From Rhizobiales bacterium 62-17 (GTDB lineage: Bacteria > Pseudomonadota > Alphaproteobacteria > Rhizobiales > Beijerinckiaceae), in NCBI GenBank assembly GCA_001898965.1, contig MKVW01000009.1:62001-126000 (forward strand): DNA of 64,000 bases, read 5' to 3'. The notes beneath the pieces are model-generated. The model did not search any database, was not told the DNA's origin, and was given only the letters and a program-made list of their open reading frames with translations. Below, one piece after another: positions 51,486 to 60,529 of the stretch. Position numbers and translations under genes: made by a program. Position 1 is the first letter of the stretch. Each line of letters begins with the position of its first letter.

Positions 51486-52166
51486 CTATTCGACATATTG
51501 CGCCACATGCGTCGCCGTTTTGGCGATGTGCTCACGCATCAAAGCCGCCGCCGTCGCCTTATCGCGCGCCAGCGCCGCCTCCAGAATGCGGCGATGCTCG
51601 GCCGAACCGTTGCGCGCCCCTGTCCGGTTCAAGGCATAGAGGCTGCGATAGCGCTGCGACTGGTCGAACAGCGACGAACATTGCTCCTGCAATCGCTCCG
51701 AGCCGCAGGCCGAGATCAGCGCCATGTGAAAATCCTTATGCCGCTCGATCCAGACCTCCGCATGCAAACGCTCCGGCCGTGGCAATTTGCTCTCCACCGC
51801 ATCGAGCCGATCGAGGGCGTCGATAATCCTTGTCTCCCAAGACTTTTGGCCACGTTCGATCGAATCGACCAGGCCATGCACCTCGATCACCAAGCGAAAA
51901 TGCGTGATATCGTTGAGATCGCCGAGCGAGGCCCGCGCCGCGCGAAAACCGCGCCGCTGATCGGCAACGACGAAATCCTCCGCCGCCAACCGCGTCAGCG
52001 CTTCACGTAGCGGACTGCTGGAAAATCCAAACTGCCGCTGCAAGGCATCGACCTTGAGCTTCGTGCCCGGCGCAATCCGCGCCGTGACGATCTCATGCTT
52101 GATCGCGCGATAGGCGGCCTCCGATCGCACGGTCTCCGTTTCCAAAACGTCGCTCTGGTTCGTCAT
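51486..52166 (-). CDS. GntR family regulator (FadR/FCD type)
   Basis: 226 residues from the ATG at 52166; GTG at 52181 would add five residues. The winged HTH is at about 15-70 (AYRAIKHEIVTARIAPGTKLKVDALQRQFGFSSSPLREALTRLAAEDFV). The all-helical FCD effector domain follows (FHMALISACGSERLQEQCSSLFDQSQRYRSLY, then EHRRILEAALARD and HIAKTATHV), with conserved His and Asp metal ligands visible. It is divergent from the extradiol dioxygenase-Bug-amidohydrolase genes, and two TTTTATGCATAAAA palindromes lie between them, so it very probably controls that locus. Confidence 0.93.
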   Translation of the reverse strand: MTNQSDVLETETVRSEAAYRAIKHEIVTARIAPGTKLKVDALQRQFGFSSSPLREALTRLAAEDFVVADQRRGFRAARASLGDLNDITHFRLVIEVHGLVDSIERGQKSWETRIIDALDRLDAVESKLPRPERLHAEVWIERHKDFHMALISACGSERLQEQCSSLFDQSQRYRSLYALNRTGARNGSAEHRRILEAALARDKATAAALMREHIAKTATHVAQYVE

Positions 52167-52204
52167 GCTCGCGCCTGCCACTCGCCATTCCCAGCGAGTT
52201 TAAT

Positions 52205-52218
52205 TTTTATGCATAAAA
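52205..52218. promoter_or_regulatory. GntR operator 1 (TTTTATGCATAAAA)
   Basis: Perfect 14-bp palindrome 39 nt upstream of the GntR start. Identical core to the site at 52306-52321; centres are 102 bp apart. Candidate autoregulatory site. Confidence 0.75.
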
Positions 52219-52305
52219 TATGGTCGTTGTAAATTCGATCATCGAGAATGATCCGCCCAAACGTGCACATTTGACCCGAACTATCTTTGGCTTGCGCATC
52301 ATAAA

Positions 52306-52321
52306 TTTTTATGCATAAAAA
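52306..52321. promoter_or_regulatory. GntR operator 2 (TTTTTATGCATAAAAA)
   Basis: Perfect 16-bp palindrome, 53 nt before the dioxygenase start. Its ATG and the following codons are in frame with that gene but lack a Shine-Dalgarno, so the site is regulatory, not coding. Confidence 0.75.
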
Positions 52322-52373
52322 TGAGCATAAGCGCGCCAATCCATTGGCGGCCAAAATCGACGGGAGCGAACGC

Positions 52374-53264
52374 ATGATTCAGGTGAAGCGACTGGGGCAC
52401 GCCACTTTCTCGACGCCTGATCTGGACCGCCAAACCGACTACTGGACGCAGGTGATGGGCCTGTCGCTGGTCGACCGTTCGCCCAAGCGCGCCATTCTCG
52501 CCAGCAAACTGGGACAGGAATCGGTCGTCCTCGAAACCGCCGATCATGCCGATTTGCAGCGCATCTCCTTCCAGGTGGCGCCCGGTACCGACCTGAAAGC
52601 CCTGGCGCAAAAGCTGCAGAAGGAAGGCGTTGCCAGCGACCGGCAATCCGACCCGACGCCTGGCATCGCCGATTGCCTGACCTTCACCGACCCGAAAGGC
52701 ACGACCGTCGAGATTTTTTCCGACTGCCAGTTCCACAAGCGCGATGCCAGCGAAGGCGGCGTCAATCCGTTGAAAATCGGCCACGTCGCCTCGCGCGTCA
52801 ACGACGTGCAGAAGGTCGCTAAATTCTATCAGGAGTTTCTCGGCTTCCGCGTTTCCGACTGGCTCGGCGATCACTTCGTCTTCATGCGCTGCGGCATCGA
52901 ACATCACACCGTGAACTTCGTGCAATATGAAACGCAGCGCCTGCATCACGTCGCCTTCGAGGTGAAGGATTGGGCGGCCATTCATCATGCCTGCGAAGTG
53001 CTGACGCGCAACGAAATCCAACTGGTGTGGGGGCCGCTGCGCCACATCGTCGGCCATAACGTCGCTGCCTATCACCGCAACAGCGATGACCTGCGCATCG
53101 AATGCTATTGCGAAATGGACATCATGGCCGACGAGGAACTGGGCTATTGGCAGCCTCGCCCCTGGCACGAGGAAATGCCGTTACGGCCGAAGAAATGGCC
53201 GAAGGAGACGTGGCGCAGCGCTTGGGGCTTTGGCTCGTTCGGGACGTTCCCCGGCTATCCATAA
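52374..53264 (+). CDS. VOC-family extradiol ring-cleavage dioxygenase
   Basis: 296 residues from the ATG at 52374 (GGAG 8 nt upstream). Two vicinal-oxygen-chelate modules: a non-catalytic half at about 5-115 and a catalytic half at about 135-250. Fe(II) ligands are H137, H191/H192 and E243. The C-terminal 40 residues are Trp/Pro/Lys-rich, a type of extension I do not recognise. Cleavage of a catechol-like ring is the expected reaction; the substrate is unknown. First gene of a plus-strand set with a Bug receptor and an amidohydrolase, all facing away from the GntR gene. Confidence 0.9.
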   Translation: MIQVKRLGHATFSTPDLDRQTDYWTQVMGLSLVDRSPKRAILASKLGQESVVLETADHADLQRISFQVAPGTDLKALAQKLQKEGVASDRQSDPTPGIADCLTFTDPKGTTVEIFSDCQFHKRDASEGGVNPLKIGHVASRVNDVQKVAKFYQEFLGFRVSDWLGDHFVFMRCGIEHHTVNFVQYETQRLHHVAFEVKDWAAIHHACEVLTRNEIQLVWGPLRHIVGHNVAAYHRNSDDLRIECYCEMDIMADEELGYWQPRPWHEEMPLRPKKWPKETWRSAWGFGSFGTFPGYP

Positions 53265-53300
53265 AGGCTAAACGCCTGCTGCACATAGGGGAGGATGCGG

Positions 53301-54329
53301 ATGGCCAATGCATGGCAGAAGCTTCAGCTCGCCGTCATCGTGACGCTCGCCGGCACCGGTTTGGCGCAGGCGCAAAGTGCTGACGGCTATTTCAAGGGCA
53401 AGACGATCACCATCGCCGTCGGCGGCACCGCGGGCGGCGGCATCGATATCGGCGCGCGCATGCTGGCGCAATATATCGGCAAATATTATCCCGGCGAACC
53501 GCGCGTGCAGGTGCAGCTCATGCCCGGCGCCGGTGGCGTGCGCCTGATCGAATATTTGAACAGCGTCGCGCCCAAGGACGGCACCTATATCGGCGCCTTC
53601 TCGACCGGGCCGATCATCGAACCGCTGACGTCGCTGCGCGAGACCAAATATAAGATCAGCGATTTCACCGCCGTCGGCGCGTTGGAAAAAGACGTCAGCC
53701 TCTGCGTGACTTGGCACGGCTCGCCGATCAAGACCCTGGAAGACGCCAGGAAACGCGAAGTAACGGTCGCCGGCACGGGTGCCGCCTCGCCGACCGACAT
53801 CATCCCCCTGGCGCTCAACGCGACGCTGGGCACGAAATTCCGCGTCATCACCGGCTATGTCGGCACGCAGGAAACCATCATGGCGATCGAGCGCGGCGAA
53901 GCCGATGGGCGCTGTGGCTGGGGCTTCTCCAGCATGAAATCGTCAAAGCCCGACTGGTTGCGCGAGAAGAAGCTGAACTTCATCGTGCAGCTCGGCCAAC
54001 ATCCAGACGCCGCGGGCGTGCCGAGCGCGCTCGATCTTGCCACCGACGACGCCGGCCGGCAGATGCTTAACGTCATCATCGCCCCGCAAACCATCAACCG
54101 GCCCTATCTGGCTCCGGGCCAAATGCCCGCCGATCGCGCGAAGGAAATGCGTGCCGCCTTCATGGGCGCCATGAACGACAAGGATTTCCGCGCCGAATTC
54201 GAGAAGGTCGCCGGCGAACCGCCCGGCCCCACCGACGGTGAGGCCATGCAGAAGATTCTTGAAAGCATCGACGCAACGCCACCCGACGTGGTGAGCCGGC
54301 TCAAGAAAATTCTTAACACGGCGAAATGA
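53301..54329 (+). CDS. Bug-family solute-binding receptor
   Basis: 342 residues from the ATG at 53301, which has GGGGAGG 6 nt upstream; the ATG at 53295 sits inside that site. Signal peptide to LAQA-QS (about residue 25). Mature start GKTITIAVGGTAGGGIDIGARMLAQYIGKYYPGEPRVQVQLMPGAGG is a Bug/TctC beginning. Two Cys in the second lobe (VSLCVTW, GRCGWG) may pair. No TctA/TctB genes are nearby. It is 36 nt downstream of the dioxygenase and 31 nt upstream of the amidohydrolase, so it probably captures the compound that they process. Confidence 0.92.
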   Translation: MANAWQKLQLAVIVTLAGTGLAQAQSADGYFKGKTITIAVGGTAGGGIDIGARMLAQYIGKYYPGEPRVQVQLMPGAGGVRLIEYLNSVAPKDGTYIGAFSTGPIIEPLTSLRETKYKISDFTAVGALEKDVSLCVTWHGSPIKTLEDARKREVTVAGTGAASPTDIIPLALNATLGTKFRVITGYVGTQETIMAIERGEADGRCGWGFSSMKSSKPDWLREKKLNFIVQLGQHPDAAGVPSALDLATDDAGRQMLNVIIAPQTINRPYLAPGQMPADRAKEMRAAFMGAMNDKDFRAEFEKVAGEPPGPTDGEAMQKILESIDATPPDVVSRLKKILNTAK

Positions 54330-54360
54330 CAGCCTGTCGTTCGTTTGCAGGGAGGATGCG

Positions 54361-55830
54361 ATGTGCCACTTCTGCGCCACCGTCAGCGGCAGGCCACGGA
54401 GCCGACGCGCCTTCCTGCGATCGAGCCTTGCCGCCTGTGCCTATGCCTTCTCCGCGCCCATCGTTTGGCCGGCCTTCGCACAGTCAACACCCATAGACGA
54501 CGCCGACCTCGCCCGGCTCACTGGCGCCCGCCGCATTCTGGTGAAAGGCGGCAGCGTCCTCACCATGGACAAGCAGGTCGGCGACTTCGCCCAGGGCGAC
54601 GTGCTGATCGAGGACGGCAAGATCAAAGCCGTCGGCCGGCTGGCCGATACGCCGACCGATGCCGTCGTCGTCGAGGCACAAAACCGCATCGTCATGCCGG
54701 GCTTCGTCGACACCCATCATCATTTCTACCAGGGTATCCTGCGCAGCATTCTCGTCAACGGCCTGCTCAATCCCGACTATAACGCCACCATCAACGGGCC
54801 GATCACCGCCGCTTATCTGCCGCCTGACGTCTATGCCGGCTCGCTGATCTCCGCGCTCGGCATGATCGACATGGGTACGACCCTGGCGGTCGACACGTCG
54901 CAGGTGTCCCATACGCCCGAGCATACCGATGCCGGCATCAAGGCGCTGACGGAATCCGGCATGCGCGTGGTCTATGCCTATTGGCTCGGCCAAGGCGACA
55001 AGATGCAGTATCCGCAGGATTCGCGCCGGCTGCGCCAGCGCTATTTCAATTCCGAGGACCAACTTCTCACGCTGGCGCTGGGCTCGGTGCTCGATCCAAA
55101 GATTTTCGCTTATGCGCGGCAGAATGATCTGCGCATCGTCTCGCATGGCGTCGACCAGCGCCGCGAACCGCGCCTGCACGAATTGCAGAAGGCGGGTCTC
55201 TTGCGCGCAGGTGACGAACTCATCCACTGCAACGATCTCTCCGATACCGCCTGGCGTCTCATCGCCGACGCCGGCATCCGCGTGTCACTCGCGCCGCCCA
55301 TCGAAATGACGATGGGCCATGGCATGCCCGGCATTCAGGGCGCGCTCGATCATGGCATCCGTCCGAGCCTGAGTTCCGACGTCGACGCCACCATGGCACA
55401 GGATCCGTTCACGATCATGCGCACGACGCTCACCCTGCAACGCGCCCTCGTTCTGCAACGCGCGCGCCAGGGCGAGAAAAACCTGCCTCCCCTGCTCACC
55501 GCTCGCGACGTCCTCGAATTCGCCACCATCGAAGGCGCGCGCTGCGCCCATCTCGACCACAGAACCGGCAGCCTCACCCCCGGCAAACAGGCCGATCTCA
55601 TTCTGCTGCGCACCGACAGTCTCTCGGCCTGGCCGATCAACAATGCGGTGGGCGCCGTCGTCAACGTGATGAATCCGAGCCATGTCGAGACGGTGATGAT
55701 CGACGGCAAGGTGAAGAAATGGCGCGGCCAGATGGTCGGCGTCGATACCGCCCGTGTTCTGCGTTTGGCGGAGGAAGCGCGGGCCGGCGTTCTGCAACGC
55801 TGCGGCTTCAAGCGCGATTTGCTGGAGTAA
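54361..55830 (+). CDS. Tat-exported amidohydrolase (chlorohydrolase/cytosine deaminase-like)
   Basis: 489 residues. The N-terminal 40 residues form a twin-arginine signal (SRRAFLRSS with R15-R16, then a hydrophobic stretch and AFA-QS). The amidohydrolase barrel follows. The first metal motif is H119-x-H121 in GFVDTHHHFYQG; a later SHGVDQRR may provide the next His, and SSDVDATMAQDP the Asp. The C-terminal beta domain (GSLTPGKQADLILL) is the usual one. The TRZ/ATZ branch is mainly cytoplasmic, so export makes it unusual. An extra CHFC at residues 2-5 may be part of the leader. Substrate unknown. Confidence 0.88.
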   Translation: MCHFCATVSGRPRSRRAFLRSSLAACAYAFSAPIVWPAFAQSTPIDDADLARLTGARRILVKGGSVLTMDKQVGDFAQGDVLIEDGKIKAVGRLADTPTDAVVVEAQNRIVMPGFVDTHHHFYQGILRSILVNGLLNPDYNATINGPITAAYLPPDVYAGSLISALGMIDMGTTLAVDTSQVSHTPEHTDAGIKALTESGMRVVYAYWLGQGDKMQYPQDSRRLRQRYFNSEDQLLTLALGSVLDPKIFAYARQNDLRIVSHGVDQRREPRLHELQKAGLLRAGDELIHCNDLSDTAWRLIADAGIRVSLAPPIEMTMGHGMPGIQGALDHGIRPSLSSDVDATMAQDPFTIMRTTLTLQRALVLQRARQGEKNLPPLLTARDVLEFATIEGARCAHLDHRTGSLTPGKQADLILLRTDSLSAWPINNAVGAVVNVMNPSHVETVMIDGKVKKWRGQMVGVDTARVLRLAEEARAGVLQRCGFKRDLLE

Positions 55831-56004
55831 TCGCGCTAAATTCCAGTTGCGAAGGCGATTCGAATACCCGATGTGCGAAATCGCACAGTCCGAGCCCGGA
55901 CAATTTTGTCCAATCCGGGCGCGCGAGACCTTCGCGTCGGCCTGACACCTCTTCGATTCCCGCCCCGTCAGCGACCGTCAAATCCTGACATCTCGGACCA
56001 TGCG

Positions 56005-56661
56005 ATGAGCATCGAAACCCTGCGCACGACCATCGATCGTCACGTCAGCGCCCTTCTCGACATCTGCCCCGCCTATCGGGCCAGCATCGATGAGATCACG
56101 ATGGCCGATTATCACGAACTGCTCGGGCAATTGTTTCATCATGTCTCCGCCTCATCCTGCACATTCGCCATTGCCGGCGACAATCTCGGTCCCGAGCGGC
56201 CCGAGGCGCGCGACTATCTGAAGCGCCATGCGGCCCGGGAGAAATCGCGCTGGCAGTGGATTCGCAATGATCTGGCGGCCACCCGCTACGAGGGACCGGA
56301 CCCCGATGGTCAGTTTCCCGGCGTTGAAACCACCGCCTATCTCGCCCTCAGCCACTATGTGGCCTATCGCATGCCTTTGGCGAAGCTCGCCATCGCCGCC
56401 ATGCTGGACGCGGTCAGCGCGCGCCTCGGCAATGGCTCGGCCCTCCAGATCGTGCAGGCGCTGGGGTTGACGCCCGAGGAAACCAGCTTCCTGCTCGCGC
56501 GCCAGACCGGCGACGGCACCGTTACCGAAGAAATCTTCGATATTCTGGGGCGCTCCCGGCTCACCGAGCAGGAATGGCATGACGTGATCTGGGCGACGGA
56601 AGTCGCCGCTGTGCTCTATCAGCGCGTGCGTGCGGCGCAGCGCCTTTACACCTTTCACTGA
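56005..56661 (+). CDS. Heme-oxygenase-like-fold protein (iron-containing redox enzyme type), possibly degenerate
   Basis: 218 residues, all helical. Helices carry the pattern of heme-oxygenase-like iron enzymes: ITMADYHELLGQLFHHVSASSCTF near 35-55, then HAAREKSRWQWIRNDLAA (about 78-95) where related proteins have a Glu-x-Gly-His triad. At the last expected ligand helix the sequence reads GDGTVTEEIFDILG, with no His. I therefore infer the fold but doubt a complete di-iron site. It lies 174 nt downstream of the amidohydrolase on the same strand, with an ATG at 56005 and weak upstream signals. Alternative: a regulatory helical protein. Confidence 0.65.
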   Translation: MSIETLRTTIDRHVSALLDICPAYRASIDEITMADYHELLGQLFHHVSASSCTFAIAGDNLGPERPEARDYLKRHAAREKSRWQWIRNDLAATRYEGPDPDGQFPGVETTAYLALSHYVAYRMPLAKLAIAAMLDAVSARLGNGSALQIVQALGLTPEETSFLLARQTGDGTVTEEIFDILGRSRLTEQEWHDVIWATEVAAVLYQRVRAAQRLYTFH

Positions 56662-56676
56662 AACGCTTCGAGGGGC

Positions 56677-57591
56677 CTATTCGGCGGCGCGCGGCACGAT
56701 CGTCGCCACGATCGAGGCATCGAGCGCTTCAAAAGCCTTGAGGTCGATCAGGTCGTAGAGCTCGGCGCGGGTTTGCATGTCGTTAAGCAGCGCCTTGCTG
56801 CTGCCGTCGCGGCGCAAAGTGGCATAGAGCCGCTCCTGCGCCTTATTGGCCATGCGCAAAGACGACACCGGCCAGATCACCATGCGATAGCCCATCGCCT
56901 CGAATTCCGCCGCCGTGAAAAATGGTGTGCGGCCGAACTCGGTCATGTTGGCGAGCAGCGGCACGCCGGGCAAGGCACGGGCAAATGCGCGGAACATCTC
57001 CGCGTCGGTCAGTGCTTCGGGAAAGATCGCGTCGGCACCGGCTTCCAGATAGAGCTTGGCGCGCGCCACAGCGCTATCAAGGCCCTCGCTTGCCGCCGCA
57101 TCGGTGCGCGCGATGATGTAAAGATGGCGGCGTGCCCGCGCCGCCGCCGCCACTTTCGCTGCCATGTCGCGCGCATCGGCGAGTTTCTTGTCGTTGAGAT
57201 GGCCGCATTTTTTCGGCAGCAATTGATCTTCGATATGAACGGCGCCGGCGCCCGCATCCTCGAAGGCGCGCACCATATGCATGACGTTGAGGGCTTCGCC
57301 ATAACCCGTGTCGCCATCGACGAGGAGCGGCAGACCGCTGGCACGAGCGACCTGACGGATGAAGAAAGCCACTTCATCGACGGTGATGACGCCGAGATCG
57401 GGCAGGCCCATGGAGGCCGTCATCGCCGCGCCGGACAGATAGAGCGCTTCGAACCCGGCCGCCTTGGCCTGCAAGGCCGCCATGCCGTTATGGGCACCAG
57501 GCATTGGCACGATACCGCCGCGCGCGATCAAAGCACGAAAGCGCTGTCCGGCTGGCTCCTGCGGCAGATCGGAAGCAACGAGATAAGGCAT
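56677..57591 (-). CDS. prpB: Methylisocitrate lyase
   Basis: Cleaves 2-methylisocitrate to pyruvate and succinate, the last step of the methylcitrate cycle. 304 residues. PEP-mutase/isocitrate-lyase superfamily motifs: YLSGAAMTASMGLPDLGVI, D92 and D94 in VDGDTGYG (Mg2+), and the catalytic KKCGH at 127-131 with C129. AAGGAAAG precedes the ATG. It is separated from prpC by 187 nt occupied largely by a REP-like element, so the prp genes are probably transcribed in two parts or with reduced coupling. Confidence 0.96.
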   Translation of the reverse strand: MPYLVASDLPQEPAGQRFRALIARGGIVPMPGAHNGMAALQAKAAGFEALYLSGAAMTASMGLPDLGVITVDEVAFFIRQVARASGLPLLVDGDTGYGEALNVMHMVRAFEDAGAGAVHIEDQLLPKKCGHLNDKKLADARDMAAKVAAAARARRHLYIIARTDAAASEGLDSAVARAKLYLEAGADAIFPEALTDAEMFRAFARALPGVPLLANMTEFGRTPFFTAAEFEAMGYRMVIWPVSSLRMANKAQERLYATLRRDGSSKALLNDMQTRAELYDLIDLKAFEALDASIVATIVPRAAE

Positions 57592-57628
57592 GGTCTTTCC
57601 TTCAATTTATAATGTTCCGGGCCTTTCC

Positions 57629-57767
57629 CGTCATTGCGAGGAGTGCAACGACGAAGCAATCCAGGGGCGCGTGGTAGATTATTAGAGAACGCCTGTGGCG
57701 CGGGTATATTCGCGTCCATGATCTATACCTTGGCTCCTGGATTGCTTCGCTCCGCTCGCAATGACGG
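57629..57767. repeat. REP-like palindrome, ATTGCGAG family (copy 2, compound)
   Basis: 139-bp element with outer arms CCGTCATTGCGAG/CTCGCAATGACGG and inner arms GAAGCAATCCAGG/CCTGGATTGCTTC. It is the same family as the element at 12693-12763, but the arms stand in the opposite order, so the pair here is oriented inside out. The core (57672-57733) is about 60 nt without similarity to the first copy. Located between prpC and prpB. Confidence 0.8.
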
Positions 57768-57778
57768 TGAGGTGTTTG

Positions 57779-58966
57779 CTAGGCGGCCCGCACGGCGGCT
57801 TCCGCCACACCGCGTTTCTCGATCGGCACGAAAACGCGGTTCTCCGGCCCGATATAATGGGCGGACGGACGGATGATCTTGTTGTCGGCGCGCTGTTCCA
57901 TCACATGGGCGCTCCAGCCCGACGTGCGCGCGATGACGAAAAGCGGCGTGAACATCGCCGTCGGCACGCCCATTCTATGATAGGAAACGGCGCTGAACCA
58001 ATCGAGATTGGCGAACATTTTCTTGGTTTGCGCCATCACGGCCTCGATCCGCTCGGCAATGTCGAACATTTTCATCGATTGGGCGTCGCGCGACAGGCGC
58101 CGCGCCACATCCTTAATCAGTCGGTTACGCGGGTCGGCGACGGTGTAGACCGGATGGCCAAAACCGATCACCACTTCCTTTTCGGCGACACGGCGGCGGA
58201 TGTCGGCTTCCGCTTCATCGGCATCGCCGTAACGTTTCTGAATTTCGAACGCCACTTCATTGGCGCCGCCATGTTTCGGCCCGCGCAGCGCGCCGATGGC
58301 GCCGGTGATCGCCGAATAGATGTCGGCGCCGGTGCCGGCGATGGAGCGCGCCGTGAAAGTCGAGGCATTGAACTCGTGTTCGGCATAGAGATTGAGGGAC
58401 GTGTGCATCGCCCGCACATGCTCTGGCGCTGGCGGCACGCCGTGCAGGAGATGCAGGAAGTGACCGCCGATGCTGTCGTCATCGGTTTCCACATCGACAC
58501 GCCGGCCGTTCTGGGCGAAGTGATGCCAGTAGAGCAGCATCGAACCGAGGCATCCCATCAGCCGATCGGCGATATCGCGCGCGCCTGGCGCGTTATGATC
58601 GTGCGCCTCCGGCAGCACGCAGCCGAGCGCCGACACGCCGCTGCGCATGACATCCATCGGATGCGCTGCCGCCGGCAGTGCTTCCAAGGTCGTCCGCACG
58701 GCAGCGGGCAGGCCGCGCAACGCTTTCAGTTTCGACTGATAGGCGGCGAGTTCCGTCGTCGTCGGCAAAGTGCCGTGGACGAGCAGATGGGCGATCTCCT
58801 CGAAGGTGCAGGTCTCCGCCACGTCGAGAATGTCATAACCGCGATAGTGCAGATCGTTGCCGCTGCGCCCGACGGTACAGAGCGCCGTATTGCCGGCGAC
58901 GACGCCGGACAGGGCCACGGACTTTTTCGGCGGCGGGTTCGTGCGATCGTTCGTCTCAGCGACCAT
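57779..58966 (-). CDS. prpC: 2-methylcitrate synthase
   Basis: Condenses propionyl-CoA with oxaloacetate. 395 residues, matching PrpC-type citrate synthases. Citrate-synthase landmarks: LLVHGTLPT near the start, [16 protein letters not shown] in the middle, [18 protein letters not shown] with the active-site His, and [13 protein letters not shown] with the CoA-side Arg. GGAGGAGAG precedes the ATG at 58966, 9 nt after the prpD stop, so the two are tightly coupled. Confidence 0.96.
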
Positions 58967-58975
58967 GCTCTCCTC

Positions 58976-60529
58976 CTATTCGGCCGCGAGGCCACTGGCA
59001 GCACCAGCTTTGCGCCCATCGAAAATCCCCGACTTGCGCTGTCCTTGCAGCAAAGCCGGATCGACCGAGAAGGTAAGGCCGCCGATTTCCTGCGCCGTCA
59101 GCACCGGCAGCCGCTCGACGAGGCCGAGGAAACGATCCTGTTCGGGGCGCGCGATAATGCCTTCAGCCAGCGTGCGGAACTTGGCGACATATTGCGCCCG
59201 CTTGAACGGACGTGCGCCGAGCGGATGCGCATCGGCGACGGCGATTTCATCTTCAATCACCGATCCGTCTGTCAGGGTGATGACGACGCGGCCGCCAAAA
59301 GCCAGTTCCTTCGGATCGCGGCTGTGATAGCGCCGCGTCCATTCGGCGTCCTCGGCGGTGGAAATCTTGTGCCAGAGCGCGATCGTCTCCGGCCGGTTGG
59401 CGCGCGCGGGCGCGTAAGAGCGTTCATGATGCCAGCCGCCGTCTTCCAGCGCGACGGCGAAAATATACATGATCGAATGATCCAGCGTTTCGCGGCTCGC
59501 CTTCGGATCCATCTTCTGCGGATCGTTGGCGCCGGTGCCGATCACATAATGAGTGTGATGGCTGGTGTGGATGACGATGCTGCCGATAGCACCGAAACCG
59601 CCCTTGGCATGAACCTGCGGCCCCATGCGCCGCGCCAGATCGATCAAGGCCTGGCTTTGATATTCGGCCGAATGTTCCTTGGTGTAAGTGTTCAGAATGG
59701 CGCGCTTGGCTTCGCCGCGTTCCGGCAGCGGCACATGATATTCGGCCTTCGGGCCGCTGAGCAGCCAGGCGACGAATCCATCCTCGCCTTCCCAGGCTGG
59801 TGACGGCGCGCCCTCGCCGCGCATGACGCGATCGACCGCCTCGATCGCCATCTTGCCGGCAAAGGCCGGCGCATAGGCTTTCCAGCTCGAAATCTCGCCC
59901 TTGCGCGATTGCCGCGTCGTCGTCGTCACATGCAGTGCCTGCTGCACGGCCTGATAGATCGTCTCCGTCGGCAAGCCCAAAGCCGTGCCGATGCCGGCGG
60001 CGGCCGAAGGGCCGAGATGGGCGATGTGATCGATCTTGTGCTCGTGCAGGCAGATACCGGTGACGAGATCGACCTGGATTTCATAGCCGGTGGCAAGACC
60101 GCGCACGAGCGCCGCGCCATCGAGGCCGCAATGCTGCGCCACCGCCAGGATCGGCGGAATATTGTCGCCGGGATGCGAGTAATCGGCGGCAAGATACGTA
60201 TCGTGAAAGTCGAGTTCGCGCACTGCCACGCCATTGGCCCAGGCCGCCCATTCCGGCGACAGGCGCTGCGTCGGCGCCAGGCCGAACACCGTGGCGCCCG
60301 GCTGGAACGGATGCGCCTCGGCCTGCGCCCGCGCGCTCGCCACCGGCCGGCGATTGAGCGAAGCCGCCGCGACAGCCGCATTGTCGATGATCCGATTGCC
60401 GATCATCTCGATCACGTCATCGGCGACATCGACCGGATCGCTCGCCACCTCGGCGATCTTCCAGGCCAACTGTCCCTCGCGCGGCAGGTTCTCGGCGGAT
60501 TTATGGGTGCGAACGCTGTGCGATTTCAC
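58976..60529 (-). CDS. prpD: 2-methylcitrate dehydratase
   Basis: Converts 2-methylcitrate to cis-2-methylaconitate. 517 residues, normal PrpD length; the MmgE/PrpD fold is recognisable by the conserved [36 protein letters not shown] segment, then [22 protein letters not shown]-like sequence ([20 protein letters not shown]) and [30 protein letters not shown] near 330. The start overlaps the end of the thioesterase gene by 4 nt (ATGA). Same strand as prpC. Confidence 0.95.

What the first reader, a model, noticed from the sequence alone, without database searches (positions are those of the whole stretch)
51486..56661. A GntR-controlled locus with extradiol dioxygenase, Bug receptor, exported amidohydrolase and heme-oxygenase-like protein
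Four plus-strand genes with short gaps, except the last at 174 nt, face a divergent GntR gene and share a two-operator spacer. I know of no catabolic operon with this set. Particularly unusual are the Tat-exported amidohydrolase and the trailing heme-oxygenase-like protein. A compound may be hydrolysed outside the cytoplasm, picked up by the Bug receptor, and its ring cleaved inside.
Basis: partly seen in the sequence, partly recalled or inferred. Interest (0 to 1): 0.7.

Follow-up and report, generated by a model that had tools for sequence, protein, structure and literature searches.

The report
Mosaic aromatic-degradation operon, substrate unknown
A soil bacterium carries a small, probably self-regulated set of genes that seems to take up and break open an aromatic compound; the parts are known kinds, the combination is new, and the protein that looked like a heme-oxygenase-type enzyme appears to have lost its metal-binding site.

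Summary
The locus reads best as a mosaic of two recurring modules. Module 1: FCD-type GntR regulator, class I (VOC) extradiol dioxygenase, periplasmic receptor. The receptor orthologue (70-74%) lies directly downstream of VOC in 3 other genomes, two of them close kin. GntR with VOC recurs in more distant lineages. The two spacer palindromes are the only exact copies in the 5.66 Mb genome; their core recurs upstream of 4 of 9 other related gntR genes, and not in 0.94 Mb of 64 other fetched loci. Module 2: a Tat-type exported PRK08204-class amidohydrolase. In 14 genus loci it is never beside VOC. On plasmids, distant kin lie with a LigB or VOC dioxygenase in 4 of 8 records examined. The last gene has only remote relatives and lacks all three histidines of the heme-oxygenase-like diiron motif; it follows a 174-nt gap and is probably no active oxygenase. 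'Hydrolyse outside, import, cleave inside' is plausible, unproven. No recognisable ring hydroxylase or ring-fission hydrolase is in the operon. Ordinary in kind, new in combination.

The parts
51486..52181 (-). FCD-type GntR regulator, predicted repressor of the divergent operon and of itself
   Evidence: Pfam GntR 3.6e-16 and FCD 2.1e-21; best NCBIfam relative CsiR, below cut-off; 9 relatives of 44-51% in 6 of 51 genus genomes, own included, 6 of them with some VOC match in the fetched locus, two of these only 36 residues long
52202..52218 (.). operator-like palindrome 1, proximal to gntR
   Evidence: exact 17-nt repeat; core TTTTATGCAYAAA upstream of 5 of 10 gntR genes, the window's included, and in 0 of 938,955 nt of 64 other fetched loci
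52304..52320 (.). operator-like palindrome 2, proximal to the dioxygenase gene; contains the first ATG of the ORF
   Evidence: 18-nt perfect palindrome at 52305-52322
52374..53264 (+). class I (VOC-fold) extradiol dioxygenase; metal ligands H137, H192, E243 (numbered from ATG 52374)
   Evidence: NCBIfam HpaD 2.8e-40 and catechol 2,3-dioxygenase 1.7e-36, both below equivalog cut-offs; PDB 3b59, 1mpy and others; positions
53301..54329 (+). exported periplasmic solute receptor, TctC/Bug-like or TAXI-like (Sec-type signal read by eye)
   Evidence: phmmer TTT receptor 7ndr 2.6e-4; NCBIfam TRAP_TAXI 4e-6, below cut-off; 70-74% orthologues directly downstream of VOC in three genomes
54361..55830 (+). 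Tat-type exported amidohydrolase of the PRK08204 subfamily (MCHFC, then SRRAFL, then a likely signal cut near PAFA-QS, read by eye)
   Evidence: NCBIfam NF006056 400.8 bits, above its 391 cut-off; metal ligands HxH, H, H, D kept
56005..56661 (+). degenerate heme-oxygenase-like (HDO-like) protein lacking the three His ligands; operon membership doubtful
   Evidence: alignment with 15 homologues and with 3dde, E 0.0071; 174-nt gap

Best explanation
The locus is a GntR-repressed catabolic operon for an aromatic (possibly N-containing) compound, put together from two recurring modules. Without inducer the GntR dimer binds the two TTTTATGCATAAAA sites in the shared spacer and shuts off both its own gene and the operon; inducer releases it. 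The operon then makes a periplasmic receptor that delivers a hydroxylated aromatic acid or similar ligand to a permease encoded elsewhere. It also makes a cytoplasmic class I extradiol dioxygenase that cleaves the catechol-type ring, and a Tat-exported PRK08204-type amidohydrolase that probably hydrolyses a precursor in the periplasm. The last protein is a degenerate HDO-fold relative: at most a binding or accessory protein, perhaps unrelated. Shown by sequence: gene layout, recurrence of the operator core, intact metal ligands of dioxygenase and amidohydrolase, Tat-type signal, loss of the HDO His ligands. Inferred: substrate class, order of steps, repression, co-transcription, the permease.
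For: GntR with VOC: a GntR relative is in the same fetched locus in 7 of 9 order-level loci L018-L026 (in one about 4.5 kb away), in 1 of 20 genus loci, L088, where gntR-receptor-VOC are colinear, in L156 of the gntR search, and in 4 of 5 plasmid loci L166-L170. Operator core; L088 has TTTTTATGC/TTTTTGTGC half-sites. Receptor orthologue directly downstream of VOC: L028, L029, L030. VOC relatives have near them, in one or more loci, an aromatic-acid-type MFS transporter, Rieske oxygenase, FAD hydroxylase, MaiA and receptors; 41-46% relatives lie with an FAA hydrolase in the 5 plasmid records examined. Amidohydrolase relatives lie beside a LigB dioxygenase in Martelella, Sinorhizobium and Neorhizobium, and near a VOC dioxygenase in Cupriavidus: 4 of 8 records examined. 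Inside the genus 6 of 14 amidohydrolase loci have a homologue of the window receptor within 1 kb, a seventh (L092) by eye; 1.9 expected from receptor density.
Against: VOC loci of the genus (53-87% identity, 20 fetched) mostly lack GntR (19 of 20) and this receptor orthologue (17 of 20), and none has the amidohydrolase; some stretches end at contig ends. No genus amidohydrolase locus of 14 has a match to the window VOC or to Martelella LigB. Receptors are so numerous (18-345 first-look candidates per genus genome) that with a 2.5-kb flank 3.6 of 14 are expected and 6 is not remarkable (P 0.12); within 1 kb P is 0.007 only if loci were independent, and L098-L100 look like one subclade. Four of ten gntR genes have no operator core or half-site upstream. 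No sigma-70-like promoter was found. No hydroxylase or ring-fission-product hydrolase is recognisable in the operon.
Confidence: 0.58

Rival explanations
1. Only gntR, the two operators, VOC and the receptor form the functional unit. The amidohydrolase and the HDO-like gene are recent neighbours with an unrelated substrate, transcribed by read-through.
For: Amidohydrolase orthologues at 81% and 74% lie in other contexts in G1001 and G1016. The HDO-like gene has only 31% and 25% relatives in the genus and 24-29% ones in the phylum sample, and sits 174 nt downstream.
Against: The receptor and amidohydrolase genes are 31 nt apart and share nearly the same leader, gggaggatgcg. Amidohydrolase kin occur beside extradiol dioxygenases in other lineages.
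Confidence: 0.27
2. The amidohydrolase acts after ring cleavage on a lactone, lactam or amide product, as in N-heterocycle or protocatechuate 4,5-cleavage pathways, rather than before uptake.
For: Kin without a clear Tat signal lie beside a LigB dioxygenase with a CitE-like lyase and a CoA transferase in Sinorhizobium, Martelella and Neorhizobium.
Against: The window protein and its closest relatives carry a Tat-type signal, which would separate it from a cytoplasmic ring-fission product.
Confidence: 0.12

Closest known systems
GntR-VOC-receptor catabolic loci of Hyphomicrobiales and Rhodobacterales (unnamed; L088, L166, L167, L169, L170)
   Same: FCD-type regulator, class I extradiol dioxygenase and, in most, a solute receptor or transporter; in L088 half-sites of the same operator
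   Different: The plasmid ones carry FAA hydrolase and oxidoreductases; the window locus carries a Tat amidohydrolase instead. Their operators were not examined.
kpi cluster, 4-hydroxypyridine catabolism, Arthrobacter sp. IN13 (PMC7356986; outline, abstract and passages seen)
   Same: FadR-family regulator together with an Amidohydro_1 protein and an extradiol ring-cleavage step
   Different: There the Amidohydro_1 protein KpiC itself is the dioxygenase, and an FAD monooxygenase and FAA hydrolase are encoded. Relation of KpiC to the window amidohydrolase was not tested.
Heme-oxygenase-like dimetal oxidases (HDO; PMC13108848, passages seen)
   Same: Remote sequence similarity to 3dde (E 0.0071) and to homologues with the full ligand set
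   Different: All three His ligands replaced (R, R, V) and the middle Glu changed to Asp
Bug/TctC receptors (PMC11452294, passages seen: Bug27 and Bug69 bind quinolinate)
   Same: Periplasmic receptor beside metabolic genes
   Different: Remote in sequence; ligand unknown; no TctAB permease in the operon (the genome was not searched for one)

Membership tests
Class I (VOC) extradiol dioxygenase | Two VOC modules with a 2-His-1-carboxylate metal site in the C-terminal one | tested here: met
   Pfam Glyoxalase (2 stretches) and Glyoxalase_6; H192 and E243 align with 1mpy; H137 falls at the same place in the alignment; ligand roles recalled
Catechol 2,3-dioxygenase / HpaD (equivalog) | NCBIfam curated cut-off reached | tested here: not met
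   126 and 138.4 bits against 320.2 and 321.4
PRK08204-type amidohydrolase (NF006056) | Score above curated cut-off | tested here: met
   400.8 bits against 391
ATZ/TRZ-type deaminases | H-x-x-E on strand 5 (proton shuttle; recalled) | tested here: not met
   SHGVDQ in the window protein; metal ligands HxH, H, H, D kept
Tat substrate | Twin-arginine motif, hydrophobic stretch, signal peptidase site | tested here: met
   By eye: SRRAFL, hydrophobic run, PAFA-QS; RR seen in relatives. No export assay and no signal-peptide predictor available.
Bug/TctC receptor | Match to the curated family | tested here: inconclusive
   No Pfam match at 0.001, none of TctC type at E<=5; TTT receptor 7ndr at 2.6e-4
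HDO (three His, three carboxylates) | ExxH, E, HxxxDxxH ligand set (spacing recalled; 3H/3C set from PMC13108848) | tested here: not met
   Window: ExxR, D, RxxxDxxV. Among 15 homologues ExxH is kept in 14, the middle E and HxxxDxxH in 15
HDO | Heme-oxygenase-like seven-helix fold | tested here: inconclusive
   Single-sequence model, all helical, mean pLDDT 42.9, too poor to search
GntR, FCD subfamily | wHTH plus FCD domain | tested here: met

The most novel reading that the evidence does not exclude
A periplasm-first route: the Tat amidohydrolase (with its conserved N-terminal MCxxC) unmasks or even opens an aromatic or N-heteroaromatic substrate outside the cytoplasm, the receptor imports the product, the VOC enzyme cleaves the ring, and the HDO-fold protein has become a non-catalytic binding or sensor subunit. 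Like KpiC, the amidohydrolase could itself be an oxygenase.
Probability: 0.1. Interest if true: 0.6.

Novelty: new variant of a known kind. Interest (0 to 1): 0.32.

Why it matters
It gives a testable regulon: a GntR operator core, TTTTATGCAYAAA, found upstream of several related gntR genes with receptor or VOC genes nearby in one genus. It also links a Tat-exported amidohydrolase family of unknown substrate to extradiol dioxygenases in other lineages, which narrows the search for its substrate. The HDO-like gene is a reminder that a fold name alone does not imply an oxygenase.

Tried and rejected
Rejected: the HDO-like protein as an active diiron oxygenase (ligands lost). Rejected: the four genes as a conserved operon. 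Rejected: Bug membership as certain. Weakened on recount: receptor beside amidohydrolase.

Led nowhere: single-sequence fold of the last protein (mean pLDDT 42.9), so no fold search was run; nucleotide search of plasmids for the whole locus (0 of 17 matching records cover 80%); tblastn of the last protein on plasmids (no match); promoter and terminator scan (0 promoters against 1.6 in shuffles; 6 terminators against 4.9); taxonomy look-up of one record title (no name found). Paper searches for such an operon showed none in the listings seen (in only 12 of 26, 16 and 21 papers were listed), apart from the kpi and lumichrome parallels. The search on the N-terminal CxxC listed 8 of 164 papers, none fitting. 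The downstream prpBCD-like genes are convergent and were not treated as part of the locus.
Full report
Observation. Regulator: GntR plus FCD domains. Second gene: VOC modules. Fourth gene: Amidohydro_1. The third and fifth have no Pfam family at 0.001. Beyond the last gene, after 15 nt and convergent, lie genes that I read from their translations as a prpB-prpC-prpD-like set (56677-60529; names recalled, not tested).

Regulation. The spacer holds two exact 17-nt repeats 102 nt apart, each palindromic at its core. The 14-mer core occurs only there in 5,662,285 bases, the reversed control giving 0; up to 3 mismatches to the 18-mer adds one site. In a search of 51 genus genomes, 6 have gntR matches at 1e-45, 10 matches in all. 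The core TTTTATGCAYAAA lies within about 340 nt upstream of five of the ten, the window's own included (L153, L154, L157, L160, L162), and in none of 938,955 nt of 64 other fetched loci, some of which overlap one another; the remaining fetched loci were not part of that count. A sixth, L161 (the same place as L088), has TTTTTATGC and TTTTTGTGC half-sites. The other four have none upstream. In order-level relatives a different palindrome, ATTTTCGAAAAT, stands near gntR in 3 of the 7 stretches read (L020, L021, L023). This supports an autoregulated divergent unit; binding itself is untested.

Module 1. VOC relatives at 1e-40 or better: 9 of 297 order genomes, own included; 44 of 121 in the relatives search, 43 of them among the 51 genus genomes, own included; 7 named loci from one scan of genome contigs. 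GntR is in the locus in 7 of 9 order-level loci, 1 of 20 genus loci and 0 of 7 of L027-L033, and in 4 of 5 plasmid loci (5 of the 30 rows listed of 420 records). VOC-neighbour families (output partly cut; 10 representatives scanned, 8) include NMT1 receptors, an FAD aromatic hydroxylase, MaiA (above its cut-off), a Rieske oxygenase, an Amidohydro_2 protein with a Tat-like start, and an MFS transporter of the aromatic-acid type (best match TIGR00895, below cut-off) beside the 87% VOC of G1014. All 5 plasmid VOC relatives examined lie with an annotated FAA hydrolase. The dioxygenase keeps its metal ligands but fails the catechol 2,3-dioxygenase and HpaD cut-offs, so its substrate is open.

Module 2. 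The amidohydrolase passes the PRK08204 subfamily cut-off. At 1e-60 it is in 19 of 51 genus genomes and 6 of 398 phylum genomes, own included in both. I fetched 14 of the 23 places listed outside the own genome; none is beside VOC. A homologue of the window receptor lies within 1 kb in 6 (L094, L097, L098, L099, L100, L102), and in L092 a receptor recognised by eye is adjacent. With each genome's own receptor density 1.9 of 14 are expected within 1 kb (P for 6 or more 0.007 if loci were independent) and 3.6 within 2.5 kb (P 0.12), so this is moderate evidence. On plasmids I examined the first 8 of 30 rows listed of 340 records. Martelella, Sinorhizobium and Neorhizobium share an orthologous cluster with a LigB dioxygenase and a small partner gene without Pfam family. 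Cupriavidus necator N-1 has a VOC dioxygenase (27% to the window's) and FAA hydrolase close by. Two Alloyangia records, Streptomyces and Pantoea show neither class by tblastn or annotation, though Alloyangia has an annotated 2,4'-dihydroxyacetophenone dioxygenase-family gene about 5.5 kb away. The pairing with ring cleavage thus occurs with two unrelated dioxygenase classes. Metal ligands HxH, H, H, D are kept, while the deaminase-type Glu is absent.

Last gene. Matches are rare: 2 of 385 class genomes, 3 of 51 genus, 13 of 349 phylum, own included each time. Aligned with 15 homologues, the three His of the ExxH / E / HxxxDxxH set are R, R and V here and the middle Glu is Asp; the homologues keep ExxH in 14 of 15 (L106 does not) and the rest in 15 of 15; 3dde shows the same contrast. 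The review PMC13108848 (passages seen) gives three His and three carboxylates as the majority ligand set and mentions a mononuclear variant that lacks two ligands of one helix; loss of all three His fits neither. The gene is best seen as a degenerate relative. The fold model was unusable.

Mechanism. Most likely a GntR-repressed unit for import and extradiol cleavage of an aromatic compound, joined to an exported amidohydrolase. No hydroxylase to make the catechol and no hydrolase for the ring-fission product is recognisable in the operon, so it would depend on genes elsewhere. A described precedent for an Amidohydro_1 protein with an extradiol step and a FadR-family regulator is the kpi cluster (PMC7356986, outline and passages), where the Amidohydro_1 protein is itself the dioxygenase; this keeps open the novel reading that the window amidohydrolase is not a plain hydrolase. 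Lumichrome catabolism (PMC12746152, passages) likewise joins amidases with an extradiol dioxygenase.

Verdict.

Noticed in passing
window 54361-54375; L090-L095; L163-L165: The amidohydrolase clade begins with MCxxC: the window and 6 of 6 genus relatives with an intact ORF at 56-79% (L093 from an internal Met), Alloyangia (with Tat signal), Sinorhizobium (no clear Tat signal) and Martelella (upstream of the annotated start). Not seen in L096-L100, L102 or the Neorhizobium frame; L103 unclear. Among 80 Tat-like start/ORF combinations in 1.0 Mb of window and fetched loci, MCxxC occurred 7 times, all in this clade.
   Followed up: partly
L088:11560-11800: Array of TTTTTATGC/TTTTTGTGC half-sites upstream of a colinear gntR-receptor-VOC set, with a divergent gene that looks UbiD-like by eye.
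   Followed up: partly
L101:5574-7066: An amidohydrolase copy (69-80% identity in two pieces) with a stop inside, beside a gene that looks like an FAA hydrolase by eye.
   Followed up: no
L135, L137, L139, L140, L142, L147: A 61-68% paralogue of the receptor lies within a few kb of a cysteine-hydrolase-like gene in these six loci, and near a mutY-like gene in L135, L137 and L139; read by eye from translations.
   Followed up: no
L164, L165, L172: Conserved cluster of PRK08204-type amidohydrolase, LigB dioxygenase with a small partner gene, CitE-like lyase and CoA transferase: possibly an undescribed ring-cleavage route; no paper search was made for it as such.
   Followed up: partly
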